Assembly (NCBI RefSeq): GCF_029227915.1
Contig: NC_079884.1
Span: forward strand, 1,550,001-1,614,000
DNA from: Hydractinia symbiolongicarpus
Lineage: Eukaryota > Cnidaria > Hydrozoa > Anthoathecata > Hydractiniidae
Direction: 5' to 3'
Length of the DNA: 64,000 bases
Positions within the stretch are counted from its first letter, which is position 1. Each line of letters starts with the position of its first letter. Below, piece after piece: positions 1,001 to 59,820 of this stretch. A model generated the notes under the pieces. The model worked only from the letters and a program-made list of their open reading frames with translations. It had not been told where the DNA came from and searched no databases. Made by a program: the position numbers and the translations under genes.

Positions 1001-1768
1001 AACAAAAATAATAAAGTCAGAAATGACACATCGCAAATATTTACATCTTATAAAGTGATTACGTTTGATTACGTTGAAATCCTTTAATATTTTAATCAAG
1101 TGTCAAAAACATCAAATTTATATCTGGAAAATCATTTATTCGGTTACACACTATCCTGTTCCCCAAAAATATACACAAAATGTAAAGATTATATAACCGG
1201 TTAAGAACACAAATTTTTTTTAGTATGATGATCTGTAGTGACCTTTACCAACCATTTTAAACGTAAATGTCAAAAAAGAATAAGGAGTAAATTTTGAATG
1301 AAAACAAAGATATTATTTTTGGAATATATACGGTCCGTCCTTACACAAGTTAACACAAAAAGGAAAACAGATTGGTTTTTGAAGAGCATATCCAAATCAA
1401 CTAAAATCAGTTTATTTAGCATGTCCTATATTGCCATTGCCCATAAATCTTCCACATAAAGGTTATGAAACACATCAAATTAAAGAAAAATCAGGCATTT
1501 CATCATACAATATAAAAAACAAAAAAGTTTTAGTCAGAACAATTGTAATTTTTTCAGTGTAAACAAACACAGTTATTACTACAATTTTGAAGTTCTCAAC
1601 AAAACGTGAATTTGTTCTTTCAGCACATATATATATTGCATGTGGTCTTTTTTGCAACATAAACAAAAACACAACAACCATACCACCCTCTCATAAATTA
1701 AAATAAAGTCACAAACACACGTAAATTGCCAATAATGTCTACAACTTCCTGTAAAAACTGGCATTATA

Positions 1769-2353
1769 GAAGAAAATAATTTACAAAGAGGTGGCAAGCC
1801 ACCGCAATGATAAACTCAACCTGTTAGTCTTTGGAAACAAGCTAGAGGTTGTACTCCTCTAGAGAATATGCCTCCAAAAGCACAATTCTCCCTTTTTACA
1901 AGGAATTAAAAAAAATATAAAAAAAAAAATAAAAAAATAAAAAGTACACAACACATTTGAAAAGATGAACAGAATTTTAACCAAGGGCAGGATGGTTTCG
2001 ATCCATATTTCTGAACCTAAGTACCCTGGATGTCTAGCTGGGTCACCTCGAAGAGGTCCGCGGACGGTCATCAGCAGAAACTAGACATTCCTATCTTCCT
2101 AAAATTAACTTTGACCACTTTCTGTTCAACTGTGCTATTCTTTGTTTTTAACTCAGGTAATAAGTGGAGTCGTTACTCTCCAAAGACAAGATCATGTGTG
2201 ATCAAACCCCCCTGCTAATTTTTATTTTAATTTTTTTTTTTTTTTTTTTTTTAACTGGGGTAATAAGTGGAGTCGTCACTCTCCAAAGACAAGACCTAGT
2301 ATGATCAAACCCCCTTGCTAACTTAATTTTTATTTTATTTTCTTTTATTTTTG
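1769..2353 (-). mobile_element. R2-like LINE, 3' UTR only (copy 1)
   Basis: This stretch is nearly identical to 48642-49210, the 3' end of the longest LINE copy in the window. Read on the minus strand it ends with a tail of TTATTTTCTTC type. It holds the terminal hairpin GGTGGCAAGCCACC (1790-1803), the hairpin AGAGG...CCTCT (1844-1860) and two copies of the module CTGGGGTAATAAGTGG...CCCCCTTGCTAA (about 2151-2218 and 2255-2322). No coding part remains, so the copy is strongly 5'-truncated, as is usual for target-primed reverse transcription. The low divergence from copy 7 suggests a recent insertion or a local duplication. Confidence 0.8.
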
Positions 2354-14700: not shown

Positions 14701-15027
14701 GCAACCTAAATAAAGGTGCATTACAGCATTGAGTTGATTGCGCAATTTCTTTTTATAAGCAACTGGGATTTTGGTCTCATCCGTACCCTACCAATCATCA
14801 CAGCCCAATCACCCTACCAGCCATCATACCTCAGTTACTGTAGGTTGTGCAACATGAAGAACCAGTACATCACCAAAATGGGGTGTACATCACCAAAATG
14901 GGGTAACTCTTTTTTACTTAAAATGTTAATTGCAACATAAATCTGCCCTTTATTTTAGGTATGACCTGCTTAGTCCCATTGTCTACCTTCTCGTGGTGCA
15001 GGTTGTCAAGAAGAGCTTGTAGACTTT

Positions 15028-18345: not shown

Positions 18346-18358
18346 CTATACTGGTTGA

Positions 18359-18690
18359 CTGGGGTAATAAGTGGAGTCGTCACTCTCCAAAGACAGGACT
18401 GAGTGTAGTCAAGCCCCCTTGCTGACTCATTCCAGTTAAAATATTCTTATCTCAGCTCTTCTAAAAAGAAAACATATGACTCGGGACTGTTAAGAAGGCG
18501 GTCATCACAGAAAATTACTGCTCTATCGTTGCAATGTATCCACCTGTGTGCCATTTGGTCGAAGGCTATGGTTGTGTAGTGACCATTATTTAAGTTGCCG
18601 CAATGGTTGATAATAGCCCTTAATTGAAATTTTTTAGGCTGACAAAAGTTTAACTTGATGTCAGAAACAAAAAAAATAAAAAATATATAA
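18359..18690 (-). mobile_element. R2-like LINE fragment with the USP C-terminus (copy 2)
   Basis: On the minus strand the frame ending at 18447 reads FQLRAIINHCGNLNNGHYTT ... HCNDRAVIFCDD. NHCGxxxxGHYTT is the histidine box of USP-type deubiquitinases. The first 40 residues of that open frame do not match the other copies and are host sequence at the 5'-truncation point. After the stop comes the CTGGGGTAATAAGTGG module of the 3' UTR (18359-18420). This copy preserves Gly where copy 7 has a stop in the same box. Confidence 0.75.
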
Positions 18691-30892: not shown

Positions 30893-33829
30893 ATGTCACG
30901 ATTTGAAAAGTTTTTAAGTGAAAACACTGCTGCTTCAGCAGGAGTATCGTCTGCAGGCGAATCAACAACAACAACAACAGCAAGTACAACATCAGTAACA
31001 GAATCACTAGCAACAGCAGTTACAACAGCAACATTTGCAACAACAACAACAACAGCAACAACGACAACAACAGCTGCATCAAGTCAAGAAAACCTTAGTA
31101 ATGTAAGGTCCACTTTTATTACCATCGTCTATAAGTTCTAATTCTCTTGATGAAAAAGGTTTACAATACAGCAAGCTGCACTGAAGTATCTTGTCTACAG
31201 GGACGGTGGATGTAAATAAAATTGGGATTAGGCTCCCAGAAGAAGGTGCTGAATACACTTTCTTGCTTATTACAAGCATGAGTACTGTCCAACTTGGACC
31301 TATAACTATTCACTGAGAAAATCTTAAAGAGAAAAAACAATCCTTCAATCACAAACAATACGACACAAGACAGATCTAACAACATAAACGGACTGTGGTT
31401 ACAGAACAAACACAAATGGAAAAAATGTATATGTCAAAAATATATAATATAAAAAAAGAATTATATAAAACCCTCCTGTGCGCCAGAACTTGTGACTCTG
31501 GCTGTAGCTTTCCACATGTGTTACAGGGCCCCAACACTCAGCCTTACACAGGAGGTTGTCATGACAGGACCAGCCTGTACATATTTTGACTAAGGACAGC
31601 AGGGTTGTCAAGCCTGAAGACCAAGTTAGTAAACTTGGGCACCTTACTGAACTGGGGTAAAAAGTGGGGTCGTTACACCCAAAGACAAGCTGAAAGCAAA
31701 CCTCCTTGCTAAGCTTCTTTTAAGTTACCAGAGAAGAGTGAGCTGAACTCTTTACCCTCTGGGTATTGACGGCAAACTGGTTCGAATGAACTAGCTGGGG
31801 TAATATAAAACCGCTCGGATTTACATTTTCCTCCCCCATGACCCTGGAAGTACAGGTTTTATAAACGTAATGATAAATGTATAAGAAAGAAAGAAAAAGC
31901 GGATCAACAGCGAACGTAACAAAGAATATAACATGAATTGTTGTTGAGAATAGGTGGAGAGCATTTGCAAACCGCTCTATCATTGCAGTGGTACCAAGAA
32001 TTTGTGGCAGGATCCTTAACATAAGTCCAATAATGACCTGCGGTTAATGTACCGGAGTGATTAATTGTTGCTAACAATGAGTAGTTCTGATTAAACATTG
32101 TGTCCGTATCACTGACGAGAGGTAGTTGCAGGAGAGAGTCACGTAAAGAAACACATTCAACAACTCTGTTGTCTTTTACCAGATGTTCACCATGTTTTAA
32201 AAACCTTTTAAGATGCAGGAATAAGATTTCACTACTCCTGCTGATTTGCGTTTCTCTAGTACTCTCTCTATGTGCAAAGCATTGCGGACAAAACCACTTG
32301 TTTCCATCAGTTAGAATTTCCGGTTCTAAAAATTTGCTGACACAAGATTGGATTTTAGATGTCATTGGCAGTGTTAAAATGTCCTGCATTTCGACATTTA
32401 CCGAGGTGCACAGGCAGGTGTTACAGCTTACGGACATTGAGATTTCAGTTGAGATTTTATCTGCAGCAATCGGGGAAAATCCCTTAAGGGCGTCCAAAAC
32501 CACAAACAAAATCTCTGCTACATCTTGCTGAGTATTAAATTGGAAGTCCAGTTTCCCATCAGAGTGCATTTGACGTGCAAGGGCCCAGAGAAAATTCGAA
32601 GGGTCAACAGGTGACAATGATTGCTTCAGCTTCGCCATGTTAAGCGAAATAGACCTCGCAATAGGTGATAAATGAAACGATTCTGACCCACTCTGGCACC
32701 AGAGTGTTGGAATGGTACTTAATACTTGCAAAATGGCGTTGGCGTAACAAGTGTTGCCTTTGTTTAAAAAACCGATGTTTTTATAGACACTAATTGGTTG
32801 AGTGTCATTTTTATTTTGGCTAACCTTTTTAGATGGCCCCTTTCGGCGAGATGAAACACCCTTGGTCTCCACAATGGGCAAAGCCTGCTTGGATTTGGGT
32901 AATTGCATTAAGGAGTCAGTTGACCAAACATTGGATTCACGTGCCAGCCAAATACAAAAAGAAGACCTCATACTGATTTTACCGAGATCATTTGCAGTGG
33001 AATAAGCAAGTTTGTTGGTGAAACCCATTCTTTTTAAACAGGCAGTGGTGGTTCTTGCACAATATCCTCTTGCTCCTACTTCCACTGCGAAGAAATCAAC
33101 TTGCCAGCCATTAACCATAATCACATTCATTAAACAGGAACATTTGGCAACTTTTGTGGAGTGCCAAGCATTCATGTTTTCCTCACATGGGCAAGTGAGT
33201 TCTACAATAATAACGCGCTTAAGGTCATTTGAATATAACACAAGGTCCGGTTTAAGCTCAGAAATGGCAATATGGCTAGGAAACACATAGTTCGAGTGTG
33301 TGTCAGCAACAATCTTCCAATCTTTGGTAAGGTGCAGTATACCTGACACTTTAGATTTTGTATGTGCCTTTGACCCGGCTCTCAGAAAGGTTATTTTTTG
33401 ACAATTTTTAGGAGGTTCAGAAGGAAGCTCAAAAATGAACTTTTTCAAAGTTTCTACCAAATGGGTAAGTACAGAATCGTGTCTAAAGGTATATCTACCC
33501 TGGGAAAGAGCAGTTTTACAAGAACCTATTCTCATCACATTGTTGCATTGAAAAAATTGAGTCTTATATTTTTATATTTATGTTGAGTTTTATATAGTAT
33601 ATTCTTTTCCGTATTTTAGGATCTTTCTTACAAAGCATACCTACGGTATCGTAGAAGAAACCCAGGGCCCAGGTCAAGGGCGTCATACCTTGTGTGGCGT
33701 CGCCTCGGGGGCAGGGACCGCGAGGGCTTCCGCTGGCGGGAGCGGCCTGGGCAACCTACTCACGAAGAAGGGGCGAAATCGATCCTGATACAACAGGGGG
33801 TGTGTTCCATCAAGGTGGAATACCGTTAA
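30893..33829 (+). CDS. Predicted two-exon gene: Thr-rich N-terminus, Arg-rich C-terminus
   Basis: Exon 1 is 30893-31102 (70 codons, donor AAT|GTAAGG). Exon 2 is 33620-33829 (69 codons plus TAA, acceptor TTTTAG|GAT). Both junctions are phase 0, giving 139 residues. Exon 1 reads MSRFEKFLSENTAAS, then a tract of Thr encoded by ACA repeats. Exon 2 is much richer in G+C and very basic (YRRRNPGPRSRAS, VWRRLGGRDREGFRWRERPG). The family is not recognised; a nucleic-acid-binding role is only a guess from charge. A TTTTTAG acceptor lies 11 bases before the ATG, implying an upstream 5' UTR exon or a trans-splice site. The intron is almost wholly filled by LINE copy 3 in the opposite orientation. The gene lies inside Helitron-2, so it may be captured cargo. 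Confidence 0.55.
31146..33540 (-). mobile_element. R2-like LINE, endonuclease-USP portion (copy 3)
   Basis: A 5'-truncated LINE on the minus strand, beginning just inside the CCHC knuckle and ending with the 3' UTR. The UTR holds the stem GCCAGA/TCTGGC (31482-31502), the palindrome GGGCCC (31526-31531), one CTGGGG module (about 31657) and a terminal CAGCAAGCTG hairpin (31169-31178). It fills the intron of the two-exon gene, leaving only about 45 and 80 bp of intron at its sides. No target duplication is obvious. Confidence 0.8.
31904..33538 (-). CDS. LINE polyprotein C-terminus: R2-type endonuclease fused to USP deubiquitinase
   Basis: One open frame of 544 residues with no stop. The start is arbitrary because the element is truncated. 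Residues 1-20 (CKTALSQGRYTFRHDSVL) follow the CCHC knuckle of fuller copies. LKPDLVLYS...VIIVELTCPCEE is the PD-(D/E)xK core of the restriction-like endonuclease of R2-type LINEs, followed by GW...FFAVEVGARGYC. After a basic linker comes a complete USP/peptidase C19 fold: GFLNKGNTCYANAILQVL (Cys box), CNTC and CPQC zinc ligands, LFLHLKRF, and INHSGTLTAGHYWTY (His box), with HCNDRAV supplying the third catalytic side chain. The endonuclease would nick the target for reverse transcription; the USP would remove ubiquitin from an unknown protein. This is the best-preserved USP copy in the window. Confidence 0.85.
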   Translation of the reverse strand: MMRIGSCKTALSQGRYTFRHDSVLTHLVETLKKFIFELPSEPPKNCQKITFLRAGSKAHTKSKVSGILHLTKDWKIVADTHSNYVFPSHIAISELKPDLVLYSNDLKRVIIVELTCPCEENMNAWHSTKVAKCSCLMNVIMVNGWQVDFFAVEVGARGYCARTTTACLKRMGFTNKLAYSTANDLGKISMRSSFCIWLARESNVWSTDSLMQLPKSKQALPIVETKGVSSRRKGPSKKVSQNKNDTQPISVYKNIGFLNKGNTCYANAILQVLSTIPTLWCQSGSESFHLSPIARSISLNMAKLKQSLSPVDPSNFLWALARQMHSDGKLDFQFNTQQDVAEILFVVLDALKGFSPIAADKISTEISMSVSCNTCLCTSVNVEMQDILTLPMTSKIQSCVSKFLEPEILTDGNKWFCPQCFAHRESTRETQISRSSEILFLHLKRFLKHGEHLVKDNRVVECVSLRDSLLQLPLVSDTDTMFNQNYSLLATINHSGTLTAGHYWTYVKDPATNSWYHCNDRAVCKCSPPILNNNSCYILCYVRC

Positions 33830-34784: not shown

Positions 34785-35260
34785 TCTGTATTATAATACC
34801 CGTATACGTCTGTCTGTCAATCGCGTAAAATGGTAGCGTAGCTGCGCGTCGCTCCTTCCCACTAACCACGCCTGAACATTTTCATCGTCCAAGCAACCTT
34901 TTTATGCATCTTTTGACCTAGCCACCCCGACCATTAATCCGGACTATTATTAATCCAGAGTTATAAACCTGTCAACCCTTTTGGGCCGGACTTTAATTTT
35001 ATTAACCAATCAGAAACCTTATTCGTTTCACGTATTTACGCAACCCAGCGTATTAGGCTGGGGCGTCCACGAGATCACCAGAATATACATACGCAGGCAC
35101 GAGACCAAGAAGACGGATTGGTTTTACACACTTTTCCCATTTTCTTTAAAGCACTTAGCTATACCTTAACGTTTCACCCCTTTTACATTTCTCATTATAG
35201 CTGCTCATCACATGACTCTATAGGAAAATGATAAATATATTATTACGTTCTCTAGATTGA
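34785..35260 (+). mobile_element. 5' end of a second Helitron, abutting the first
   Basis: It starts TCTGTATTATAATACCCG, then CGTCTGTCTGTC, then CGCGTAAAATGG. This matches the first 50 bp of Helitron-2 (24666) with a few differences. No coding part follows. The similarity fades, and a LINE 3' end begins near 35262, so only a leader piece is present. Confidence 0.55.
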
Positions 35261-35261
35261 T

Positions 35262-36015
35262 GATGAGGTGACAAAACAGCTAGCTGTAATGATATTTCTT
35301 GTCTACTGACAGCTGGTTCTACTATAGTTAGAGGTTGCAACCCTCTAGAGATTTTTCAAAAAAGCAAAATCCCCCTTTTTGCAAGGATTTCCTAAAAACA
35401 TTGACCGTAAAAGGCAGAAAAATACAACAGCGACAGAACACAACACTAAACAATAAATATTAAAGCAATTCAAAATGAATTGAATAGGTACAAATGAGAT
35501 AAATAAAACTTATCATAACGTGAATATCCTTAAACGGATAAATTTAAAATTATTCTTTAGAGAATGTGTTTAAGAAGCAAACAACTATCTGCGCGCCAGG
35601 ACTTGTGACCCTGGCTGTAGCTTTCCACATGTGTTATGGAGCTCCAACACTCAGCCTTACACAGATAATTGTTGCTGTGGACCTGCCTAATGACAGTACC
35701 AGCCTGTCATAACTGGGGTAATATGCGTGGGCGTAACACCACGAAGACTAGATAAGAAAATCTAACCCCCTTGCAAAGCTTCTTCTAAAATGACTAAGGG
35801 CAGCAGGACTGTCAATCCTAAAAGCAAAGTGAGCAAACTCTGCCTCCCTACTGGACTGGGGTAATAAGTGGGATCGTTAAGCCCAAAGACAAGATATGAT
35901 ATCAAGCCCCCTTGCTGTGATTCTTACAGTGTCTCTATACAAAGAGAGGAGTGAGCAAACTCCGGTTTCACGGTGCACTGACCAACATAAATCAGCTGGG
36001 GTAAATAAAACATGT
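35262..36015 (-). mobile_element. R2-like LINE, 3' UTR only (copy 4)
   Basis: The terminal hairpin ACAGCTAGCTGT (35276-35287), AGAGG/CCTCT stem (35330-35346), GCCAGG/CCTGGC stem (35595-35615), palindrome GGAGCTCC (35638-35645) and three CTGGGG modules (about 35707, 35857, 35995) occur in the same order as in copies 3 and 5. No coding sequence remains. Confidence 0.75.
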
Positions 36016-36868
36016 ACCTATAAATCTCAAAGAAACCAATTTTTAGATTTTAGCTAGAAACGCAGATTACGAGGCTGCATTCTGCTAAAGCTAGCTGGCT
36101 AGCTATACCTAGCTGTATTTATTCTCATTCTTTTAAAGTTTTTATTCTTATATTGGGGTTGTGGCTATTAGTTATCTAGTTAGCTCTTGACCTACCTCTG
36201 GCTAAAAAGTGAAAGTAGCCAAATGCAGTTTTAGGCTAGCTACAACAAATTTCTTATTCAATAATTGATTATGAGATAACAAGACAGCAAGCTGTGATAA
36301 TGAAACTGGTCTAACGACCTTTGAAGTTCAAATTGTAGAGGTTACACCCTCTAAAGATCAAAACGCAGTGCAAGATCTCCCTTTTTGCAAGGATAATCTG
36401 TAGATTCAAGGTAATTGAACCAAACAATCCTCTCTACACATTACAATACGTACAACTAACGGTCGGTACACAAAAACTGACAACATGAAAACAGAAGACA
36501 GACATGACGACAACAATACAACAAAGAATTTACTATAAAAATAAATAAATATAAAACTATAAATATGAGCAGACAACCACCCGAGCGCCAGGACTTGTGA
36601 ACCTGGCAGTAGCTTTCCACATGTGTTACGGGATCCTAACACTCAGCCTTAAACGTGCAGTTGTCGCTTCGGACCAGCCATTTCCTTCGGACCAGGCGTA
36701 GGTCAGGACCCAGCCGGAAGACAGTGGAATAATCTACGTGGATGTAAAGTCACGAAAACAAGAAATATAGAAACGAAAACCCCTCATATTATAGCTTATT
36801 CCTAACATCAGGTATAGCAGGATTATTAACCCTGTAGACTAAATGACTTAGCCTTCCCACAGAACTGG

Positions 36869-37238
36869 GGTTCGTCTGCGGCTCCCAGTTTTGGGGACCG
36901 CGGATCGAATCCCGCTCACTGCTTGGCAGTATGTTAGTGATGAACAAAGTAGTTCTTCTTCAATATGACTTACACGCATTATACTCACCCGTCATGATCA
37001 GAGGTCTGATCGGGGTGAAGCATTCTCTGTTGAGAATGAAATACGGATGTGCTATGATAAATATTCACCTATATGTATACACACCATCCGGATAAACTAT
37101 CTGAGTTCATCACTAACATATTGCCGCACGTAGTGTAGTGGGTTCGTCTGCGGCTCCCAGTTCTGGGGACCGCGGATCGAATACCGCTCACTGCTTGGCA
37201 GTATGTTAGTGATGAACAAAGCAGTTCTTCTTCAATAT
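36869..37238 (+). repeat. tRNA-derived SINE-like insertion with a duplicated 100-bp block
   Basis: GGTTCGTCTGCGGCTCCCAG ... CTTCTTCAATAT occurs at 36869-36963 and again at 37140-37238. The second copy is preceded by TAGTGTAGTGGG (A-box-like), contains a stem TCCC-AGTTCTG-GGGA with an anticodon-like loop, and then GATCGAATACC (B-box-like). An inverted copy of TATGTTAGTGATGAAC lies at 37107-37122. The block replaces the C-terminal half of the USP of LINE copy 5. Confidence 0.55.
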
Positions 37239-38245
37239 CCTGCTGTGTGTTAATATTGAATGGGTTGTTCCTAGCATTGGACATCTTACGTTGAACGCTC
37301 GGAGAAAGGCGGAAGGGTCTACAACTGAGGTGGATTTAGACAACAGAGACATAATTAGCAAGACGGACTTAGCCAGGGGGAAACAAAAGAGGACTTTGAT
37401 GCACTTCCAAAGTGCAGGAGTTACAGATAATGCTTGCAGGATAGAATTAGCATAGCATGTATTCCCTTTATTAATCAGACCAGTATGAGTTGGTTTTGCT
37501 GGAGTGCTGTTGGTAGGCGGTTCTGGGTCCAGGTGCAAGTGACTTTTATCCACAGTTGGCCTTTCTTGTTGGTGCTGTTGTTGTTGCTGCGGGCTTGTAA
37601 CCTTTGGCAATAGAGGGGTAGGCACAGATGTTGAGCCTGACGCAACATTGCAGCCGCCTTGGTTCCACGTAATTGAGTCCCCGGCTAGCCAAATGCAGAA
37701 GGACCATACAAACGTCGCCTAATTTCCGGACGGCTTGGAAAGCTTCTTTGTTTGGGAAACCCAATCTTTTTAAACAAATTGCAACTGACCGAGAGCAATA
37801 TCCACGTGCACCCACTTCGATCGCGAACAGATTTACTTGCCATCCATTATGTTCGATGATATTTATGAAAGGGATGTATTTAGATAGCTTTTTGGAGTGC
37901 CAGGTTTCCATGTTTTCCTCACAAGGGCAAGTAAGTTCAATTAAAATAACACGTTTGCTGTTGTTGGAATACAGGACAAGCTCTGGTCTAAGCGATGTTA
38001 TAGCAATATAACCAGAAAAAATAAGTTTACTATTAAGTCTGAAAGAAATAACCAGTCAGTGGCAAGATGTGAAAGGCCTACCGATTTTGATTTTTTGCTA
38101 TATGGGTGACTACCTGCTTTAACAAATTCTATATTATTTAGGTGCTTTAGAGGAGATGAAATAGATTTGGAAAACGTGGTGATCAACTGTGAAAGTTCGC
38201 GCAAGACAGAGTCGTGACGAAACGTAAATCTACCCTGTGTTCAAG
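37239..38245 (-). pseudogene. LINE copy 5 endonuclease and USP N-terminal half
   Basis: Successive frames read LRPELVLYSNN...VILIELTCPCEE, then GWQVNLFAIEVGARGYC (the R2-type nuclease, with Glu for the first Asp of its core). A basic linker follows, then GLINKGNTCYANSILQALS (USP Cys box) and FNINTQQDIEE. The frame is then lost in the tRNA-derived repeat at 37238. The histidine box is absent, so the protease cannot be active. Confidence 0.75.
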
Positions 38246-38971
38246 ATGTTTTGCAGGCCCCTAAAATGTGAGCTGTAGTGCAGGCTTGTTTTCCACACAA
38301 AAAACAGAAGGATTCGGTACATATACGGCAACGCCTTAAATTGCTCGGAGAAGGAAGGTCCAACTTACTTGCACCTGTAGTTGCGAAGCTCCGCTCACAT
38401 CCTTTTCACCATCAATTTCTTTTACAGTCACTGATACTAATTTCCTGTAAGAATGAGACTGTCTAAGAGAAGTTTCCTTAGGTTTAGGACAGAGACCTAA
38501 ACCGTTCTTACCGAAATGGGGTGAACCCATAATTTCTTTAATCTTTAAGTCTGTTTCAGAAATTCTGACTGAATTGGACACGCTCCATCTACCAACCTTT
38601 AATGTTGGTACAGCTGCCCAAACCAATAGATCTTTAGAATCCCTTAGCAGCAAGTGTCCACTGATCTTAGCGGACTTGAGTATGAAAGTTAGGCTTTTTA
38701 TCGGTAGAGAGCAGAGGTGAGCTGGAATCATAAAGACATAAATCAGTGGTATAATGGTAAAGATTGAGCCATTTCCTTATAAATACTGACACCTTCCGTT
38801 CGAGGGTGCTGACACAAGACATTGCAACTTCCGTATAACAGCAGTGGCCACTGAATGCGCTGGGTTAATAGATGTTGTAAAATCCACAGCTTTTTAGGGC
38901 CTTTATAAAACGACTTTTCAATAATAGAGACCCCTGCAGACAACTTCTTATTAAGTTCGTCAATAGCCTTC

Positions 38972-39540
38972 CTATCGGAGATAACCATCCATAATACGGC
39001 CTAGAAATCGCACAGACATGGAATGGATAGAAGGAATGTAGGAAGAGAAGTCTGTGGGGTCAGCAGGCTTTTGGACAGCAAAAGGAGTTGGATTAAGTGA
39101 CTTACCTTTTATGATCACGATGGTGCGTGATTTGTTGGCACGAAAATCCATGCCAGCCCATTTTAGTGCTGCAGTACACCTGGACAAAAGCGTTTTGGTA
39201 CCAGACCCTGATGAAGACATCAGGTTGATATCGTCCATAAAGGCTCTAATCAAGGAGAGTGACACTTTGCTTGATGTGATAAACTTAAGAGCGGACGCCA
39301 GTAATTTATACTCAAGAATAATATTGATGCCTGCAAGTAAAAGGATAATTGATAGTGTACAGCCCCCAAAATTTCCCCCGAATGTTTATGCCAATTACTT
39401 GGTGCAAGCGGAGAGAATGATTTGCTGTAGATGCCAATGTAATAATTTCTAATAAAAGAAATCCAATGTGGAGGAACACCATAGCGCTTAAGGGCAAAAA
39501 AGTCGAAAAAAAAGTCGACGAGGAATTGAAGGGTAAGCAC
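38972..39540 (-). pseudogene. LINE copy 5 reverse transcriptase core
   Basis: The first frame has LKRYGVPPHWISFIRNYY. A one-base shift leads to GGCTLSIILLLAGINIILEY (the QGCTLSPLLF-like motif), then IRAFMDDINLM (the catalytic box, FMDD in place of FADD) and TLLSRCTAALKWAGMDFRANKS. The order and wording are those of R2/NeSL-clade reverse transcriptases, which prime on nicked target DNA. Upstream N-terminal domains are not present in any copy here. Confidence 0.8.
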
Positions 39541-39560
39541 TTGCTATATCTAGCCAGATG

Positions 39561-42500
39561 GTAGCTAGATCCGACTTAGAAAAGCAGGCATCTTTAACTT
39601 AAGTGCTGACCAAACCATCGACATGTGTTCCCAGCAAACTGGAACCTTATTTAATACACCCCTTCTGAACAGTATGATGCTAATATAGTTAGGTAACTAC
39701 CATCTTATTACTGTCATGGAAACTTAATCACCATGAATAAACTGTGCTAAAAGGGTAATAAATGCATGTGCAACACGGTTTACCTGTACTAAGCACTCAG
39801 TCCAGTGTAAACAACAGGCTGTTTCCTGTGTTTCTGCTTAACCGAAGCTGCGATAAAGCTTTTCTATAAAAGGGTATTGTTCCTACATGAATGTGCGACA
39901 TTGTTTAACTGCACGGAGTAACATTCATTTTTGAACTTTCACTGTGATCATTTTCTAAACAATAACAAAGTCTGGTCAGGTTTTTTTTGCGATGCCGGGG
40001 TAACAACGCGTTGCAGACTAAGTTAATTGTGCAAGAAAGTTTTTTTTGAAAAAATATATTATACCTGAAATACCATAATGCTCTGTGCGCTACACAACAA
40101 ATACGACATTCTGCATACCTGTACTAAAGTGCTCCACCTGAATGATTGGCACAGTTTACGGTTCTTATTAATTGCTCCACAGGCTTTCGTATGCTGGGTA
40201 ACACTTTTACTTGTATCGCTTACCCCGGCTAGTATATTTAAATCTCGACTAGCACAAAATAAATAAAATAATGAAACAAATAATCTGTCTGCGCGCAATA
40301 AAAAAGTTGTGCTAGGGAAATAGGAATACTAAATGCGATATTTTTAAATTTAATCTAAAGAACGGTCGAAATCGTTGATTTTGCTACGACTTCTGTATAA
40401 TAATAGCTGTATTTTTCTGTTCAAATGTTTTTGCATACTGAATACTTTTGTCTTTTTTGCATACTTTTTGACTTTTCTGATACGCTATATTAGCTTTTTT
40501 ATTGTCTTCTTTGAAATTTCTCTAATTTCTGCCTGATTGCAACTGCATTAAAATTTCAAATATGTGCACATAAAAGTCATATTGCATTTTTTCTCCCCCC
40601 ACCCCATCGAATTTCATAATGACCCCCCCCCTTATTTTACTAAAATGTCAAATCCCATTTTATTTTGAACCTCCCATATTAGGCTTTTATAATTTCACAG
40701 AAAACAATGTGTTTAGTGCCAGGAAGATTTGTTGTACTTGACTTCATTTATTACAAGCTCGTGAGCTTGTATTAAAACGCAAATGTGTCCTACAAGAATG
40801 GAAATTTTTGCCTCTCTGAGCACCGACACGGGAGTCGTCGTGTGTTCGAATCTCATCTTGGTAACTATTTTTACTTTTTTTTTCTTTTTTCTTTTTTAAA
40901 AAGATAAGACAAGTGTTCAAAACACTTGTTTAAAGGTGTTTCCACCAAACTTTTTAAAAGTGAATGTAGGCAGAATTAACTGAATTAATGAATTTCGCAA
41001 ATTTTGGGGTTTGTGGTCTTTCTTCTTCCTGTCAGTCGGTTCACCCAAGACGGACCCATCGAAAATTAAAAGTTCGAGGAATTTTCCGTTCAGGAAGGTC
41101 TCACAAATCAATTTTGAAAAATAAGTGTGTAACAAATATTATTGCGTATCTGAATAGTAAAATATGTCGTGTCTAACTTCGTAACAAAAATCCCAATTTG
41201 ATAGACAGCTTTTTGTAAACTTTATTCGCGAGGTTGTTTGCGTATATCATACGTCTTGTTTATCTTTAGAAAGCAACTGGACAACTTGACAGACAATGTT
41301 TTATTTGTGGCAAAATGTTTAGTCGTTTGACAATGAATATTACTAAGTTTTTAAAAAAACGATGACGTTGTCAAAAATGCCCCTGAAATACGAAGAAGAG
41401 AAAGAGTGGAGTGTTTCCGTGCCTTTAAAAACAGTATTTACAAAGAAAACATAAAGCAGAGGAATACAGGAGCTGGTCATGTGTTCTCTTTGAAATACAT
41501 TTTATGCTAATTCATTTATTACAAGGAAGATGAAAGAATGTGAAAAAGGTTGTTGCGCCTCTAAAATCGCTGTACCACTCTTGATGTTAGAAAAGAAAAA
41601 CTCAACGAAGACACATACAGCCTATGAGAGATGATGTAGTTCTTGATGCAAAATCTGACTCAAATGAAAAAGTGAATAGGCGAGCGGATAAAACGTACGA
41701 GGTAAGGCGAAATCATCTTTACACTCATTTCAAATCATTAAGAACTTGTGATAAAACTTAGGAGGCAATTGAAATCTATACTGACAAGCATTCTAACACA
41801 CCATAGAGATATTATAAAAAGAGAAAGAGACACAACGGCTATTCAAGCTATTGCAGTAGGCGCGTCCCTAAAGCAGTTCATGAAAATTTTAAGTTCTGGA
41901 AGCAGGTGCATTCATGAAAATTTAAAGTTCCCGAAGCTGGATTGTTTCCTCTGATCCAAGAAAATGTGATCAAAGAAAATGTTTCGATTGTTATTTCGAC
42001 CAATCAAGGTTTGCAAAACTTAATATTTTGTTATAATTAACTGCACGTGTTAGCATAGTTTAGAGTCGTTAACACGACTTTTGCAGTTGATCGGAGAAAT
42101 AACACGAAAGAAAATCGTCGTGAAACAAATATTTAAGCGAAGACCTGAAAAATAAATGTAAACAAATGTCAATGATTAGAAGCATTTAATTTTAAACCAT
42201 AGGTAGAAAGGATTTTTACCACATATAATGTAAATTTATTAGCAGTACTAAACAAGCTCAAAGATTTTGATAAATATATCACTGAGCTTTCTTAGCCAAG
42301 CAGAGCTAGATAGCTTTTAAATGACCTGTTGTTGTGGACACCAACAAATCTCACTAACATATAACATAACATATAAACAAATAGATTTTGCAGAAAGAGT
42401 GTTCATTTTATTTTCCCTGACTGATGTTAAAATCCCCTGTTTTCCTATGCGAAATATACTTATAACTTAAAGACAATTAGGCTGAGAATGGCTGAAAAAA

Positions 42501-46654: not shown

Positions 46655-46945
46655 GTCTAGATGATAAACTCGACCAGTTAAGTCCTAAAATTTAAATTCT
46701 AGAGGTTTTGCTCCTCTTAAGAATATGCTCATATAAAGAACACAATTCTTCTTTTTTCCAAGGAGATAATTGGCACAAAATTGAACAAACAAACACAGAG
46801 AGAGAGTAGGACAGGACTTCTGTAAAGGGTACAAGAGTTTCGACTCATATTCCTGAACCTAGGTACCCAAAATGTCTAGTTGAGTCACCTCAAAAGAGGT
46901 CTGCGAACAGTCTTCAGCAGGAACTAGACATTACAACATCGTTAA
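46655..46945 (-). mobile_element. R2-like LINE, degraded 3' UTR (copy 6)
   Basis: It matches copies 1 and 7 at GATAAACTCGACC, the AGAGG/CCTCT hairpin (46701-46717) and GAGTCACCTCAAAAGAGGTC (compare GGGTCACCTCGAAGAGGTCC at about 2038). It is more diverged than they are and lacks the CTGGGG modules and the terminal GGTGGC hairpin. Confidence 0.65.
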
Positions 46946-48590: not shown

Positions 48591-49301
48591 AAATAATGAG
48601 TTAAATGATATTATTTTTGCACTTAATGTATCATAGATATGGAAGAAAATAATTTACAAAGAGGTGGCAAGCCACCGCAATGATGAACTCAACCTGTTAG
48701 GTCTTTGGAAACAAGCTAGAGGTTGTACTCCTCTAGAGAATATGCCTCTAAAAGCACAATTCTCCCTTTTTACAAGAAATTAAAAAAAATATATAAAAAA
48801 AAAATAAAAAGGACGCAACACATTTGAAAAGATGAACAGAACTTTAACCAAGGGCAGGTAGGTTTCGACCCATATTTCTGAACCTAAGTACCCTGGATGT
48901 CTAGCTGGGTCACCTCGAAGAGGTCCGCGGACGGTCATCAGCAGAAACTAGACATCCCTATCTTCCTAAAATTAACTTTGACCACTTTCTGTTCTACTGT
49001 GATATTCTTTGTTTTTAACTCAGGTAATAAGTGGAGTCGTTACTCTCCAAAGACAAGATCATGTGTGATCAAACCCCCCTGCTAATATTTTTTTATTTTA
49101 CTTATTTTTTTTTTTTACTGGGGTAATAAGTGGAGTCGTCACTCTCCAAAGACAAGACCTAGTATGATCAACCCCCCCCCCTTGCTAACTTAATTTTTAT
49201 TTGATTTTGTTTTATTTTTGACTGGGGTAATAAGTGGAGTCGTCACTCTCCAAAGACAACACTGAGTGTAGTCAAGCCCCCTTGCTGACTCAATCCGGTT
49301 A

Positions 49302-50160
49302 AAATATTCTTATCTCAGCTCTTCTAAAAAGAAAACATATGACTCGTCACTGTTAATAAGGCGGTCATCACAGAAAATTACTGCTCTATCGTTGCGATGT
49401 ATCCACCTGTGTACCATTTGGTCGAAGGCTATGGTTGTGTAGTGACCATCATTTAAGTTTCAGCAATGGTTGATAATAGCCCTTAATTGAAAATTTTTAC
49501 GAAATTTCACTTCTCCATCTACGGTTAAAGGTATGGAAAGGGTACCAGGGTAAGCAGTAATACGAGAGGCAATTTTTGACACAAGGCCGTTGGCACTGGC
49601 AAAACGTTCTAGCTGTAAAATAAGATGGGAACCGCACGACACTACCTCTTTTTCAACTAGAGCAGTTTGATGAGCTTTGCAAACATGGCAGAAGTAGGCA
49701 TTGATGTCTGACAACTCCTCGCTTTCAAAGAAATTATCTAAGGAAGATTGTAACGTAAGGTGCAGAGAAAGTTGGATGCATGGTGCTATAACTTCTGAGG
49801 AGCTGGTAATATGAATGAATTGCAAGTGGTTGATATCTTGATGCCAATACTAAAAAGACTTCCAAGAAATGGAAAGTCTAATGACAGACCAGGTAGGAGA
49901 TATTCAAGAACCTCGGGGACGTCGTGCTGAGCAAAGATATTAAATGCACTTCCCTTCGCAGCTGAGATATGATGTTTCATAGCACGCAAAAAATGGGAGG
50001 GATCAACTGGACTTCTATAAAACAGCCAAACTTTGAAGAACACTTACGATGGTTCGCCTAAATTTGAGGTTGTTTTGCTGACAGAAATGGCTACTTTAAC
50101 TTTTGGAAGGTTATAAAAACATTGTAAGATGGAGTTTGCATAACATGTGTTTCCCAAGTT
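49302..50160 (-). pseudogene. LINE copy 7 USP domain
   Basis: The Cys box GLKNLGNTCYANSILQCFYN lies near 50160-50100. A frameshift near 50040 leads to PVDPSHFLRAMKHHISAAKG and NIFAQHDVPEVLEYLL. Another near 49820 leads to CHVCKAHQTALVEKE (zinc ligands), LILQLERFAS and FQLRAIINHC. There the Gly codon after Cys is TGA (about 49457), followed by NLNDGHYTT, HRNDRAVIFCDD and YVFFLEELR. The USP is recognisable throughout but has at least two shifts and a stop in its histidine box. Confidence 0.75.
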
Positions 50161-51606
50161 TTTTAGACCGCTATTCCTAAAATCAGGGTTGGATAGCAAT
50201 GCGACTGTTGTTTTGGACGACCTTGTAGCAAGTTTTTCGGGTTTTTTGATTTTACAAGATTTTGTGTGATTTGCGGAAGATTTCTCAGGGGTTTTTGATT
50301 TCTTACATTCCATATTTGTAACAGAAGAAACTTCAGGAATGATTGGGGCCTTTTCAGGCTCAACCCAAGTGGTAGAATTTCGAGACATCCAGATGTAAAA
50401 AGAAGCACTCATGGAGGTAAAAGTTACGGATTTTAATAGGGAACGTAAAAGCTTGTTAGGGAAACCAAGGCGACGAAAACAGGTCCTTACTGATTCTGAA
50501 CAGAAACCCCTTGCACCCACCTCAATGGCAAAGAAATGCACGATCCATCCATTGTTTTTCATAGCATAACAAAGTGAAGAATATTTGCTAAGCTTTTGTT
50601 TGTGCCAATATTCCGTGTTCTCTTCACATGGACAAGTCAATTCTAACATAATTACAGTTTTGGAAGAACTGGATATTAACACGTCTGGGCGTAGTTGTGT
50701 TATTGCAATGTATGGTGGAACAACTAAAACGGAATCTAAATCTGACAGTATTTTCCAATCGGCAGCAAGGTGAAGAAGGCCTGGACACTTTGTTTGTCTT
50801 CTTAGATGTTGATTGACCGTCCGGAATGAAATTAATTTTGTTGCACTTGGAAACCTTAAGAGGTTCATATGATACCAAAAACTCTTTTAATGCGTTAACC
50901 AAAACTATTAAAACAGAGCAATGACGGTAAGTGTATCTACCCTGCGTAAGGGAGGTCCTACAGGCACCCAATATGTGAGAGACATTTGAGGATGGTTTCT
51001 TGCACAGAATGCAACTTTTGTCTTTCTCAATTCCCCAACTCACAAGATTGGTTGGAGAGCGAAGGGTGTCGTAGGTTGCCCCTATACAAAAGGAAGTTAG
51101 ACATTGTGGCAGTGAAAGAATTGTTCTCCAAGATAAACCATTTTTCACATAAGAGCACCATTTCGTCCAATTGTCTTGCAAATGCAACTGTACAGCTCTG
51201 GCATGGTAAATATCGTCTTCATTTTCTTCAATGATATTGGAAACAAGCTTTCGGTAAGCATAAGTGCCTTTTGGTGGTATATTCTTGTGGTCTAAGAGCC
51301 CTAAGCCAGCTCGCCCAGTCTGATGCAAACCTAAAATCCTTTTGAAATTTAGCTGACTATCCGCCGAAAGAACTGCCTCACTAACTTTCCAATTTCCAGC
51401 TTTCAAATCTTAGACACACAAGGGTCGACAGAATCTCTTAGTAACAGATGTCCACTGATTTTGGCAGATTTGAGAACACATGCAAGACTTTTCAGGGGAA
51501 GAGGACAAGGCGATGTCGAGGAATATAAGGAAATGTTGGAAATTGAATGATGTAGTTTTAACCATTTCCTAAAGGCTCGAATACACGGAACAATTTTGCA
51601 GATCAA
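50161..51606 (-). pseudogene. LINE copy 7 thumb, CCHC knuckle and R2-type endonuclease
   Basis: The frame entering from the Harbinger junction at 51572 reads RKWLKLHHSISNISL and LKSAKISGHLLLRDS. A shift near 51405 leads to WKVSEAVLSADSQLNF and WTKWCSYVKNGLSW. The knuckle CILCKKPSSNVSHILGAC (about 51010-50955) has spacing C-x2-C-x8-H-x4-C as in R2 proteins. LRPDVLISSSSKTVIMLELT, CPCEENTEYWHKQKLSKY and GWIVHFFAIEVGARGFC form the restriction-like endonuclease. A Ser/Lys-rich linker (KKSKTPEKSSANHTKSCK) joins it to the USP. One shift near 50850 interrupts the frame. Confidence 0.8.
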
Positions 51607-51717
51607 TTTTCAAAATAAAATATTGAACTAAAAGTGATCTAATATTGTTGCGTATATATCGTAGAAAAATAACAGAACGATAATGCCATAATGACGTAAA
51701 AACACTCAAAAATTGAC

Positions 51718-51749
51718 CTAATAAAATCAAACCGGTTTGATTTTATTAG
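51718..51749. repeat. 32-bp perfect palindrome in the Harbinger subterminal region
   Basis: CTAATAAAATCAAACC and its exact inverse GGTTTGATTTTATTAG meet at 51733/51734. Extending outward gives 52 bp (51708-51759) with one mismatch per arm. It lies between the left TIR and the first gene, and could be a protein-binding or promoter element. Confidence 0.8.
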
Positions 51750-51892
51750 ATCAATTTTTCATCGGAACAATATTATTTCAAAGGAAACCGCCAGCTGCTC
51801 ACTTTTTTTTCGAAACTCACGCTCGGTATTTCATTCATTTCAAATGTTTTTATGCACGTAAAGAGAGTAAATGAAGAGAAACGCGACTAAAC

Positions 51893-53044
51893 ATGTCAGA
51901 TAATTTTGTTTTACCAAGTACGTTTAGATCGTATTAAGCCGCAAGGCAAACTGAATTAAGGTACTTTGTATTTCTATTTTTTGTCTCTACTTTCTTCGTG
52001 ATTACACGTTGCTCTCTTCCACCTAACGTGCAACGTCGCGAAATGACGTTGTCGCGATTCCTATTCGAAACTTGAATTCTTCGTTCACTGGGAGGTTGTT
52101 ACTACCACAATGCTGTGTCTCCTGAGAGGGTTTCAATATACAAAAAGCTTTTTGGAACTTTGTTTAGATCCTCAATTCCTGACAATGACAATTCGCAGGA
52201 CACGCAAAAACGGAGTGAACCAGCTGAGGAGATTGCACAACCTGAAACAGCTGTGGTTGCAAAAAAACGTGGCAGACCTTCAAAAAAGTCATCCGAAAAA
52301 AGAGATTGGGATGATGACGAAATCTTTGTTCTTATTGAAACTTGGTCGAATCACGATAATCTCTACAACACAAGAAACAGCCAATATTTTAATCGTGATA
52401 CACGACAAAAATCTCTTGAAAAAATTCAGAAAGAATTAGCAGACCAAGGTATTTTTGCTTCAGTGAAAGATATTGCAGATAAACTCACGAATCTAAAGAC
52501 ATACTATGGTGGTCAAAAAAGATCTGTCGAATCTTCAAAGGCCAGTGGCGCTGGAGCTGATGATGTTTACGAGAGTAATTGGAAGTTCTTTCAAGTTTTG
52601 CACTTTTTAAATGATTCGTTTACTCCAAGAAAAACTTTTAGCAATGCCGATGAAAATTCAACGTACGAGGTCTTGAATCCACCCTCAGCAAAAAGCGCAA
52701 AGAAGATTCGCGATTCGAGCATGGAGACAGCGCAAAAAGTTATGCATTCTGCGGCTGCAGCTTTGGAAAAGTTAAATGAGAAAAGGTCAAACGGAGGAGC
52801 TGAAAGGAAAGAAAAAACGGAAGATGAAGTTTTTTGTGAATTGCTGTGCAAAATATTAACAAGTATTCCGAATGGCAAAGAAAAAGACATGCTTAAATTG
52901 AACATGCAACGTTCCGCAACGTCACTGAAGTATAAACGAGGTCACTCTTCCTCGTCAAGCAGCTCTGTTTCTTCTTCACCTCTCGGATCACCTGTGTTTA
53001 TGAACAACAGTTACAGCAGTTATAACAATGGATTATTCCAATAA
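51893..53044 (+). CDS. Harbinger DNA-binding protein (MADF/Myb-like, AT-hook)
   Basis: The main exon is open from 52076 to 53044 but has no ATG before its domain. A small first exon fits: ATG at 51893 (MSDNFVLP, 25 nt, phase 1, donor A|GTACGT) joined to an acceptor GGGAG|GT at 52095, which restores the frame. The protein has an AT-hook (KKRGRPSKK), then a MADF/SANT-like domain (DWDDDEIFVLIETWSNHDNL ... LYNTRNSQYF ... IQKELADQG) and a Ser-rich tail. Harbinger elements need such a second protein to bring the transposase to the nucleus and bind the termini. The first exon is inference; the domain assignment is firm. Confidence 0.8.
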
Positions 53045-53106
53045 AATATTTTTGTATACGTGTTTCTTTTTCTAGTACAAAGGTAAAAAAAATAACCAGC
53101 AATAGT

Positions 53107-54412
53107 TTATAGCTGATTCCATTGCCATGGTATTTGTCCTGGTCCATAAAAGTGGTTTGCGAACACTTCTCTGATATACTCAGCTGAGTTGGTCGCTCTA
53201 TTACTTCTGTTCACTGGCAATTTCTGAATAATGGATTCGGTGTAGCTTCCTTCTCTCCAGCGCCCAAGTTCAACTTCTCCGTTTTCGCATTCAAAATCGA
53301 TGAACCCTTGAGGTGTATAACTCTCTTTCGACAAATCTCGTAACATATTGTGCAAAACGAGTGAGGCAAGCGAAATGATAGTTGCTTTATCAGGACTTAG
53401 CATGAGCTTGGTGGAGAATACTCTGAAACGGTTCACCCATATTCCAAACGCGTTTTCACTAATGCGGCGAAATCGTGACAAACGGTAATTGAATATTCTA
53501 TTTCTCGGTGTAAGTTTCCTTTGTGCGAAAGGTTTCATACAGTTGTTGGTTAATGGAAACGCATCATCTCCAACAAAGACGTAAGGAATAGACTCGTTGT
53601 TCTGATCATGAGCCCAGTTTGGATCAGGAGACTGTGGCAGGGGCTTACAATCGGGAAGATTTAAGTCACCATTTTCTAAAGCTTTGTAAAAATAGCTGTT
53701 TCTATAAACACCGCCGTCGCTTATTCTTCCCTCGCAGCCAACATCCACGAAGCAAAACTTATAATCATGATCGACTATAGCGAGAAGTACAATTGAAAAG
53801 AATCCTTTATAATTATAGAATTCTGACCCAGAATCCTTAGGATGTAGAATAGATATGTGTTTCCCATCAGCAGCACCAATGCAATTTGGAAATTGCCAAC
53901 GCGTTCGAATCTTTTCCTCTTGCGCCATCCATTCCTCTTTGGTGTTAGGCAGATGTAAGTATTGATCCTTGAAAGACAAATAAATTTCTTGGCAAACAGT
54001 TGGTATGAACTGAGAGATAGTTGTTTTATGAATTCGAAATTGATACATCAAACTTTCGTAACTTTCACCAGTTGCAAGGAATCGCAAAGTGACAGCTAAC
54101 TTCTCTTCAGGTGAAATTGGATCTCGCATCATTGTTCGTTGTTTTTGAATCTTGGGTCCAACGATGTCGATGAGTTTCTAATATGATGAATGATTTAATG
54201 CTGTCACAGTGGAGTGATATATCCTTGATATGCAAAATGAAGTAATCAAACTTACCTGAAAAGTATCCGTGTTCATTCTTAAATAGCTTCGGTAGCTCTC
54301 AAAATCCGTTAATTTTAATTCGTTCAGAATTGTATTATAAGCTCCTCTTTCATTTCTGTGATGGAGCCAATTTTTCACCCATACAGTTTTTTTTTTCTAA
54401 CTTTTCTGCCAT
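53107..54412 (-). CDS. Harbinger DDE transposase, two exons
   Basis: Exon 2 (54177-53107) encodes KLIDIVGPKIQKQ, then ISPEEKLAVTLRFLATGESY (HTH region) and the DDE_Tnp_4 catalytic core: GAADGKHI (first Asp), GRISDGGVY (second Asp), VGDDAFPL, and ENAFGIWVNRFRVF (Glu). Exon 1 ends at 54256 with a GTAAG donor in phase 0 and carries WLHHRNERGAYNTIL and SYLRMNTDTFQ, typical of the N-terminus. The only nearby ATG (MAEKLE, plus-strand about 54412) is out of frame across a run of ten A at 54387-54396; nine A would restore it. This is either a fresh inactivating slip or a homopolymer error. The protein would cut at the TIRs and insert at TTA/TAA. Confidence 0.88.
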
Positions 54413-54675
54413 GTGAAAGAATGACACTGCTTGAAAAGATCAAGGAGCACAAAATTGTTTCTTCTTCGTTGTCGTTCATGCTTGATGTTGTGGTAAATTA
54501 AATTCAGATTGTTCTTTATATTGTCTCGTGTATGTATACAAAAATATTAAATCAATTTAAGAATTGAGTAATTATTGACCTAAAATTTTTGTGTGTATTT
54601 TTTTCAACAATATTCCGAGAAATAATATTTTTCGAAAATTGATCTGTAAAATTGTTCCGCGTATTCGAGCCTTAA

Positions 54676-55205
54676 TGAAAACAGAAAATCTTTGCTCTAG
54701 TTTTGTGATAGTAGATAGAGAAATTTCATAAATTAATAATGGCCAGCGGATTCTGGGAATTAACAGATGGTGTAAGAACCAAACCTTATGGACCCCTTTA
54801 TGAAATGACCTGTCTATAGCCATAAGTTTGTCCTCGGCATCATTTAGAAATTCTTGTATTGCAGCAGAATCAGACAAGAAGGAGTTTATTGTTCTGCCTA
54901 AAAACATAATTGGATTAGAATGAATGGATGGAATTTTTTCGCTGCCAACTGTAAACGGTGAACTTTGGACGACTTTTCCCTTATCAATAACAATGCTGCG
55001 TGATTTAGAAGGCCTAAACGACATGCCTACCCAATCAAGAGCTGTTGTACACCTGTTTAATAAATTTTGAGTACTTGGAATTAACGTGGACATTAAGAAC
55101 ATATCATCCATAAAAGCTTTTATTGGGGGTTGGTCTGGGATTTTGTTTTTATTACCTTCAGTATCAATAATTATAGAATTGCTTCTGAAAAAGGGATATA
55201 GCATA
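54676..55205 (-). pseudogene. LINE copy 7 reverse transcriptase fragment
   Basis: It reads IKAFMDDMFLMSTLI (catalytic box FMDD), LLNRCTTALDWVGMSFRPSK, then HSNPIMFLGRTINSF and WFLHHLLIPRIRWPLLIYEI, ending EQRFSVFI at the Harbinger junction. The same boxes occur in copy 5 (FMDDINLM, RCTAALKWAGMDFR, VRFLGRIMDG). The copy is truncated before the earlier RT motifs. Confidence 0.85.
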
Positions 55206-58713: not shown

Positions 58714-58949
58714 ATATATAATTTCGATTGTAACTTGCTAACCTGACCTGATCATTATGAATTCATCTCATACTTATCCCTCGGCCATGAATATACAACA
58801 GGTTGTTCAGCGAAATTTTCCGCATATAATTTGTACTGTATGTAACTGTATATAATTTGATGAACATACAATGTTTTCATTACTTGACTACCGCCTATAA
58901 GTTATATTTTTTTCATACGATAATCTTCTCTCACAGGGCCGAACATAAA

Positions 58950-59655: not shown

Positions 59656-59820
59656 AAGATATACATACACAAGATATACATACGCATCATGAATCAAAAC
59701 GATACTTTGAATTTGTTTCAGTTGCACGACAATAAGAACGGTAAGTTGAAAAAAGAAAATTGTTTTTACTAACTGATGAGAATACCTAAACCAAGGTATG
59801 GCCCACTATCACGAAAACTC

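What the first reader, a model, noticed from the sequence alone, without database searches (positions are those of the whole stretch)
48642..55205. R2-like LINE family with a USP deubiquitinase fused after its endonuclease
Seen: in copies 3, 5 and 7 the order is FMDD reverse transcriptase, CCHC knuckle (C-x2-C-x8-H-x4-C), a PD-(D/E)xK endonuclease core (RPD...ELTCP...EVGARG), then a USP domain with Cys box, CxxC zinc ligands, LHLKRF and His box. Copy 3 keeps endonuclease and USP in one 544-residue frame. Known: NeSL and Utopia elements carry Ulp1-type proteases and some LINEs carry OTU, generally placed away from the C-terminus. Inference: a USP after the endonuclease is a new arrangement, perhaps to stabilise the integration complex or counter host ubiquitin-based silencing.
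Basis: partly seen in the sequence, partly recalled or inferred. Interest (0 to 1): 0.87.

Follow-up and report, generated by a model that had tools for sequence, protein, structure and literature searches.

The report
LINE retrotransposon carrying a fused deubiquitinase
In the genome of the marine hydroid Hydractinia, a young family of jumping genes encodes one protein that has the tools to copy itself into DNA and ends in a domain of the kind that strips ubiquitin tags off proteins, an arrangement we did not find described and that suggests these elements may need to undo ubiquitin tagging to jump.

Summary
The window (Hydractinia symbiolongicarpus) has 5'-truncated copies of R2-group LINEs whose endonuclease is followed by a USP deubiquitinase domain. 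The USP lies inside the mobile unit: copy A (31147-33526) is 99.75% identical to an intact element elsewhere in the genome whose 1421-aa ORF runs RT, knuckle, endonuclease, USP. Corrections: copy A lacks the RT, copy B most of the USP, and copy C (the given coordinates) is decayed and split by a PIF/Harbinger transposon. In a relative search 47 of 112 proteins join RVT_1 and UCH. In 23 aligned near-full-length proteins the USP Cys, His, Asp and zinc cysteines are invariant, although the domain averages 33% identity. The predicted fold matches USP2. On the RT-endonuclease tree USP carriers lie in two places, and a nearby lineage carries Ulp1. It is neither R2 proper (no 28S target) nor NeSL/Utopia. 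Seven literature searches with ubiquitin terms listed no such fusion; Repbase was not searchable. Activity and function are untested; most likely the USP acts in cis on ubiquitinated proteins of the retrotransposition complex.

The parts
31147..33526 (-). Copy A: 2380-nt 5'-truncated insertion (end of knuckle, endonuclease, USP, 3' UTR)
   Evidence: 99.75% identical over 2380 nt to intact copy L031
31904..33571 (-). Copy A open frame, 555 codons stop to stop (first 15 codons are flank)
32927..33334 (-). Copy A PD-(D/E)xK endonuclease core (KPD..ELTCP..K, EVGARG)
31907..32776 (-). Copy A USP domain (Cys 275, zinc cysteines 383/386/428/431, His 513 of the frame)
   Evidence: UCH E 1.9e-32; columns; Foldseek top 2hd5 USP2-ubiquitin E 6e-25, TMt 0.79
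31147..31903 (-). Copy A 3' UTR
   Evidence: same 3' end..GTAAACCTTTTTCA(TCAA), in 27 of 28 loci matched
33528..33533 (-). Likely target-site duplication GAGAAT, 5' side of copy A (one base from the element)
   Evidence: partner at 31141-31146
31141..31146 (-). Likely target-site duplication GAGAAT, 3' side of copy A
36258..39712 (-). Copy B: RT (38978-39712), knuckle, endonuclease (37705-38037), start of USP (37222-37487), 3' UTR pieces (36258-36679)
   Evidence: tblastn and blastn matches; UCH E 2.7e-6
54673..55145 (-). Copy C: RT part with FMDD (5'-truncated)
   Evidence: RVT_1 E 0.0025, below cut-off; tblastn 58% to P0134
50410..51572 (-). Copy C: RT thumb/linker, CCHC knuckle and endonuclease
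49328..50172 (-). Copy C: USP, broken by stops and frameshifts
   Evidence: UCH E 1e-7 for the Cys box; tblastn for both halves
48638..49327 (-). Copy C: 3' UTR with three ~100-nt units
   Evidence: 93.6% to copy F over 594 columns
51573..54672 (.). Not part of the LINE: nested PIF/Harbinger transposon (DDE 53107-54177 minus, MADF 52076-53044 plus)
   Evidence: DDE_Tnp_4 E 1.3e-27, MADF E 1.7e-12; inverted ends and TAA duplication read by eye
18348..18635 (-). Copy G: USP C-terminal end (18453-18635) then 3' UTR
35258..36011 (-). Copy D: 3' UTR fragment of the L035 family
   Evidence: 97.9% over 754 nt
1765..2353 (-). Copy F: 3' UTR only, C family
46661..46931 (-). Copy E: 3' UTR piece, distant C relative
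   Evidence: 68.8% to copy C

Best explanation
This is a lineage of R2-group, endonuclease-type LINEs whose single ORF ends in a USP deubiquitinase that looks catalytically competent (shown by sequence, conservation, structure prediction and recent intact copies). The USP hangs on a variable, probably disordered linker behind the endonuclease, so it should travel with the RNP to the target (inferred). It most likely works in cis: it removes ubiquitin from the element's own protein and from proteins met at the target, so that the RNP is not extracted or degraded before target-primed reverse transcription and second-strand synthesis are complete (inferred, untested). Confidence in the anatomy about 0.97; the number below is for anatomy plus mechanism.
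For: USP inside the mobile unit: copy A 99.75% identical to L031, whose ORF is 1421 aa. In this genome six of 86 reported matches have a stop-free 1426-codon frame at 98% identity. 47 of 112 relatives hold RVT_1 and UCH in one protein (precomputed Pfam). In 23 of 23 near-full-length proteins USP N1081, C1086, C1194, C1197, C1239, C1242, H1313, H1321, D1339 are invariant, N1338 in 22; USP mean pairwise identity 0.327, linker 0.125. Between L031 and L035 families USP pN 0.377 vs pS 0.769 (saturated), linker pN 0.546. Fold: USP2-ubiquitin best match. Linker residues 227-261 have pLDDT under 50. A nearby lineage carries Ulp1 instead, pointing to the same kind of need.
Against: No activity, expression or retrotransposition data. 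Many relatives lack both USP and Ulp1 (27 of 60 rows labelled 'none', two of them only partial Hydractinia models), so the domain is not required for this kind of LINE. pN/pS among 21 young copies is 0.65 in USP (19 N, 8 S; low power) and omega 0.95 for L035 vs L036 USP on 13 changes; L036 has an altered His box. Ubiquitin rather than another modifier is inferred from fold and sequence.
Confidence: 0.5

Rival explanations
1. Chromatin version: the USP strips H2A or H2B ubiquitin (or ubiquitin on repair and replication factors) at the insertion site, so that nicking, priming or second-strand synthesis can go on in silenced or damaged-looking chromatin.
For: Position next to the endonuclease puts it at the target. 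P0289's USP is nearest in PDB to 6tbm (E 1.7e-13; a SAGA Ubp8-type subunit, recalled) and USP21.
Against: The main-clade USPs tried are nearest USP8 or USP2, which gives no histone signal; no substrate can be read from sequence.
Confidence: 0.2
2. Counter-defence in trans: the USP antagonises a ubiquitin-dependent host silencing or immune pathway and need not stay attached to the RNP.
For: USP varies more than RT and endonuclease (0.33 vs 0.56 and 0.47 mean identity) while the catalytic core is invariant, as expected in an arms race.
Against: Faster change may be mere tolerance; in the intact frames read it stays fused (L031-L033); no host target known.
Confidence: 0.17
3. Self-processing: the USP is a polyprotein protease that frees RT-endonuclease.
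For: Other retroelements process polyproteins (recalled).
Against: No LRGG-like site between endonuclease and USP: 3 of 23 linkers hold any GG, none of ubiquitin type.
Confidence: 0.04
4. Passenger or non-catalytic ubiquitin-binding domain captured by chance.
For: Many relatives do without it; counts among young copies are weak.
Against: Invariant catalytic and zinc residues in 23 of 23 and constraint between families; persistence across a deep clade.
Confidence: 0.07

Closest known systems
HERO-like RLE LINEs (my label; includes Tetraodon polyprotein Q7T1J8, P0213)
   Same: RT, knuckle and endonuclease in one ORF; with the Ulp1 rows they are the sister clade of the main USP group (100/100)
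   Different: No USP. Whether P0213 is HEROTn or Zebulon is recalled, not verified; 3 of the 8 rows of this group are named fish, the rest unnamed
R2 (Bombyx, Taeniopygia, Platysternon)
   Different: R2 targets 28S rDNA and lacks USP; branch to R2 is 2.6-2.9 changes per site
NeSL and Utopia-1_TSP (Ulp1 LINEs)
   Same: RLE LINE plus a Ubl-directed cysteine protease
   Different: Their Ulp1 is at the N-terminus (PMC4640811, section 9); here a C19 domain at the C-terminus
OTU-bearing Helentrons and Dualen-type LINEs
   Same: Mobile element with an OTU-type protease
   Different: OTU, not USP; Helentron OTU from a passage of PMC6431247, Dualen recalled
Cellular USP2/USP8/USP21
   Same: Fold, catalytic boxes, CxxC zinc ligands
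   Different: 18-25% identity in the 50 structure matches listed; fused to a LINE polyprotein

Membership tests
RLE-type (R2-group) LINE | One ORF: RT, CCHC knuckle, PD-(D/E)xK endonuclease | tested here: met
   L031-L033 frames; 23 of 23 relatives with DD, CCHC ligands and R-D-E-K invariant; RVT_1 in 6 of 6 scanned
RLE-type (R2-group) LINE | Signs of target-primed reverse transcription: 5' truncation, fixed 3' end, target duplication | tested here: met
   Fixed 3' end in 27 of 28 matched loci, truncated copies A, D, F, G; likely 6-bp duplication on A only, none clear on L031 or L032; mechanism not assayed
R2 clade proper | Insertion into 28S rDNA | tested here: not met
   3' flanks of family A differ from copy to copy by eye; no rRNA in window
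HERO clade | RT phylogenetic position with named HERO elements | tested here: inconclusive
   Sister to HERO-like rows, but no sequence with a verified HERO name was in the tree
HERO clade | Non-site-specific insertion (many members) | tested here: met
   family A only, judged by eye; some flanks are other LINE 3' UTRs or the family's own start
NeSL / Utopia | N-terminal Ulp1 (C48) protease, in the members that have one | tested here: not met
   No PF02902 in the 8 USP-bearing proteins scanned: P0121, P0127, P0160, P0169, P0173, P0186, P0195, P0281
USP peptidases (C19) | Cys and His boxes, catalytic N/D, two CxxC zinc pairs, USP fold | tested here: met
USP peptidases (C19) | Hydrolysis of ubiquitin conjugates | not testable with these tools
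   needs an enzyme assay

The most novel reading that the evidence does not exclude
USP domains were captured at least twice, at the same place behind the endonuclease, and Ulp1 once more in a neighbouring lineage: reversing ubiquitin-family tags is a recurrent, selected step in integration by endonuclease-type LINEs, not an oddity of one family.
Probability: 0.4. Interest if true: 0.86.

Novelty: new variant of a known kind. Interest (0 to 1): 0.76.

Why it matters
A deubiquitinase-type domain physically tied to an RT and its target endonuclease, in intact and very young copies in a laboratory animal, makes it directly testable whether ubiquitin limits LINE integration. R2-group proteins are being developed for transgene insertion (PMC12222951 and PMC11331408, starts of abstracts seen in the listing), so a natural accessory domain that may raise completion is of practical interest. 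It also suggests that several NCBI 'USP' gene models of Hydractinia are LINE fragments.

Tried and rejected
Considered and rejected: (a) a host USP gene beside a LINE: rejected by intact single-ORF copies and by copy A. (b) One continuous LINE copy over 48642-55205: interrupted by PIF/Harbinger. (c) Membership of R2 proper or NeSL/Utopia (membership test). (d) A single USP clade: on the RT-endonuclease tree 17 USP rows as one clade are rejected (delta lnL 85.5, AU p 1.3e-83; run after the tree had been seen, the group being defined by its domain); gain and loss cannot be told apart. USP-domain scores are inconclusive here: P0273 and P0289 score higher with LINE USPs (best 94 and 95 bits outside their own pair) than with human USP2 (43 bits), but that was the only cellular USP in the set, and nearest PDB families differ (P0173 USP2, P0289 6tbm/USP21, P0281 USP15). 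(e) Self-processing: no cleavage-like site.

Led nowhere: viral contigs and genome contigs gave no relative; my first hairpin regular expression printed nothing; my strict motif regex over 126 USP domains found the Cys motif in 126 but the His and N/D patterns in only 104 and 97, partly from truncated or decayed rows and partly because the pattern was too strict, so it is not used for any count. Within-family dN/dS has too few changes; four loci that repeat L031-L034 (L003, L004, L006, L016) and matches under 96% identity were dropped, coverage was 35-100%, and the only two stops lay in knuckle/endonuclease.
Full report
WHAT IS THERE. The window is G000:C10:1550001-1614000. Five contig lengths of G000 (39956072, 35952230, 33314500, 28449500, 24932500) equal those given for NCBI proteins of Hydractinia symbiolongicarpus, so I take the host to be that hydroid. 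On the minus strand the window holds copies of several related LINE families. Copy A (31147-33526) has one 555-codon open frame with endonuclease and complete USP, but no RT. Copy B (36.3-39.7 kb) has RT, knuckle, endonuclease and the start of a USP. Copy C (48638 to about 55.1 kb, the given finding) has all four domains in decayed form, split by a PIF/Harbinger transposon at 51573-54672 with TAA duplication. Copy G keeps the USP end joined to 3' UTR; D, E and F are 3' UTR pieces.

THE USP BELONGS TO THE ELEMENT. The own-genome search with the copy A frame gave 86 matches (a lower bound; 78 of 1628 candidates scored). Six have a stop-free 1426-codon frame at 98% identity and one a 1423-codon frame; a family 48% identical has one of 1422 codons. 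I then read six stretches: four with near-identical family A copies (L031-L034) and two of the second family (L035, L036). L031, L032 and L033 each hold the 1426-codon frame (1421 aa from ATG in L031), order RT (FMDD), knuckle, endonuclease, USP; L034's copy is interrupted. L031 has a 5' UTR of about 350 nt and a 3' UTR of about 755 nt. Copy A matches L031 at 99.75% over 2380 nt, runs to the same 3' end and has a likely 6-bp duplication GAGAAT; L031 and L032 showed no clear duplication. So a USP-bearing RNA was retrotransposed recently.

HOW WIDE. The copy A frame found 238 proteins (120 listed). P0018 found 112, of which 47 carry RVT_1 and UCH together (only the 7994 candidates sharing most words were scored). 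The profile search found 422 (120 listed); of the listed, 8 have UCH with RVT_1 and 7 have Ulp1 (PF02902) with RVT_1; Ulp1 is N-terminal in the two scanned (P0291, P0301). Of the UCH-bearing hits the only organism names shown are Hydractinia and, for P0135 and P0159, a Pseudomonadales MAG (probably contamination, inferred); host range is otherwise unknown. Six full-length proteins scanned all end in USP (UCH E 1e-25 to 1e-42); P0186 and P0195 also have N-terminal C2H2-type fingers, P0173 a weak one.

PHYLOGENY. On 811 columns of RT to endonuclease and 37 rows, the main USP group (14 rows) is one clade at 100/99, sister to a clade of eight HERO-like rows and three Ulp1 rows (100/100). Three other USP carriers (P0273, P0281, P0289; together at 80/36) and the USP-less P0194 group lie outside these (60-row tree). 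One USP clade is rejected. The two Hydractinia families L031 and L035 fall in the main USP clade. The R2 outgroup sits on a very long branch, so the root is weak. Two or more captures, or one capture with losses, both remain open. In one search two Hydractinia gene models (P0161, P0187) count as USP-less only because they are partial.

OTHER ANATOMY. In 27 of 28 matched loci the 3' end is the same..GTAAACCTTTTTCA(TCAA); L003 is the query's own locus, L013's match runs on about 13 bases, L019 stops short, L021 and L028 gave no match. Flanks differ by eye, so no fixed target. Three ends (L002, L011, L023) are followed at once by the element's own start, and L031-L034 are each preceded by a 3' tail of a sister copy (291, about 208, at least 665 and at least 1365 nt): head-to-tail dimers or partial dimers with a period of about 5367 nt. 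L034 was chosen because its spacing looked tandem; no such tail was seen in L035 or L036. Tandem structure was reported for pufferfish Zebulon (recalled).

MECHANISM. Shown: position, conservation, predicted fold, recent mobility. Inferred: activity on ubiquitin, arrival with the RNP, benefit. I favour cis-protection of the retrotransposition complex, because the domain stays fused behind the endonuclease on a flexible tether and a neighbouring lineage carries another Ubl protease.

LITERATURE. Seven searches of the PMC open set with ubiquitin or USP terms listed no LINE with a USP (20 of 25 and 10 of 58 papers shown in the last two); three more were on Hydractinia repeats, HERO/Zebulon and HEROTn. 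Seen: outline and three sections of PMC4640811; passages of PMC5035012, PMC7650587, PMC9004415, PMC3636483, PMC10294476, PMC11067881 and PMC6431247. PMC4640811 places Ulp1 at the N-terminus of nematode NeSL and Utopia-1_TSP and names five RLE clades. PMC5890265 (start of abstract in the listing) reports independent capture of DNA methyltransferases by retrotransposons, a useful precedent.

Noticed in passing
L031:354-6013, L032, L033, L034: Family A elements sit behind 3' tails of sister copies (head-to-tail dimers or pseudo-terminal repeats), period about 5367 nt; perhaps the tail supplies the promoter.
   Followed up: partly
49008-49288 (3 units), 2141-2321 (2 units), 31640-31717, 18348-18425: A ~65-nt 3' UTR module with a short hairpin (TGGAG/CTCCA; GGGT-type in copy A) recurs once to three times in divergent families.
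   Followed up: partly
P0001, P0017, P0088 (database proteins): NCBI Hydractinia gene models called USP2-like, USP51-like and USP50 begin in or run through LINE endonuclease sequence and look like LINE fragments.
   Followed up: partly
P0291, P0294, P0301, P0304, P0305, P0308, P0309: HERO-like LINEs with Ulp1 (PF02902), no organism names shown.
   Followed up: partly
51573-54672: PIF/Harbinger transposon with DDE and MADF genes on opposite strands, TAA duplication, nested in copy C.
   Followed up: yes
36868-36966 and 37140-37238: 97% identical repeat pair with a B-box-like GGATCGAATCCCG, SINE-like by eye, beside the cut-off of copy B's USP.
   Followed up: no
632-746: Perfect 114-nt inverted repeat/palindrome.
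   Followed up: no
12254-14780 and 58921-59751: 67-nt and 98-nt tandem repeat arrays.
   Followed up: no
L024, L025, L026 3' flanks: Family A copies that look inserted in 3' UTRs of C-like LINEs; L024 and L025 share a flank.
   Followed up: no
9940-11233: Dispersed repeat also flanking L035 at about 92-93% identity.
   Followed up: no
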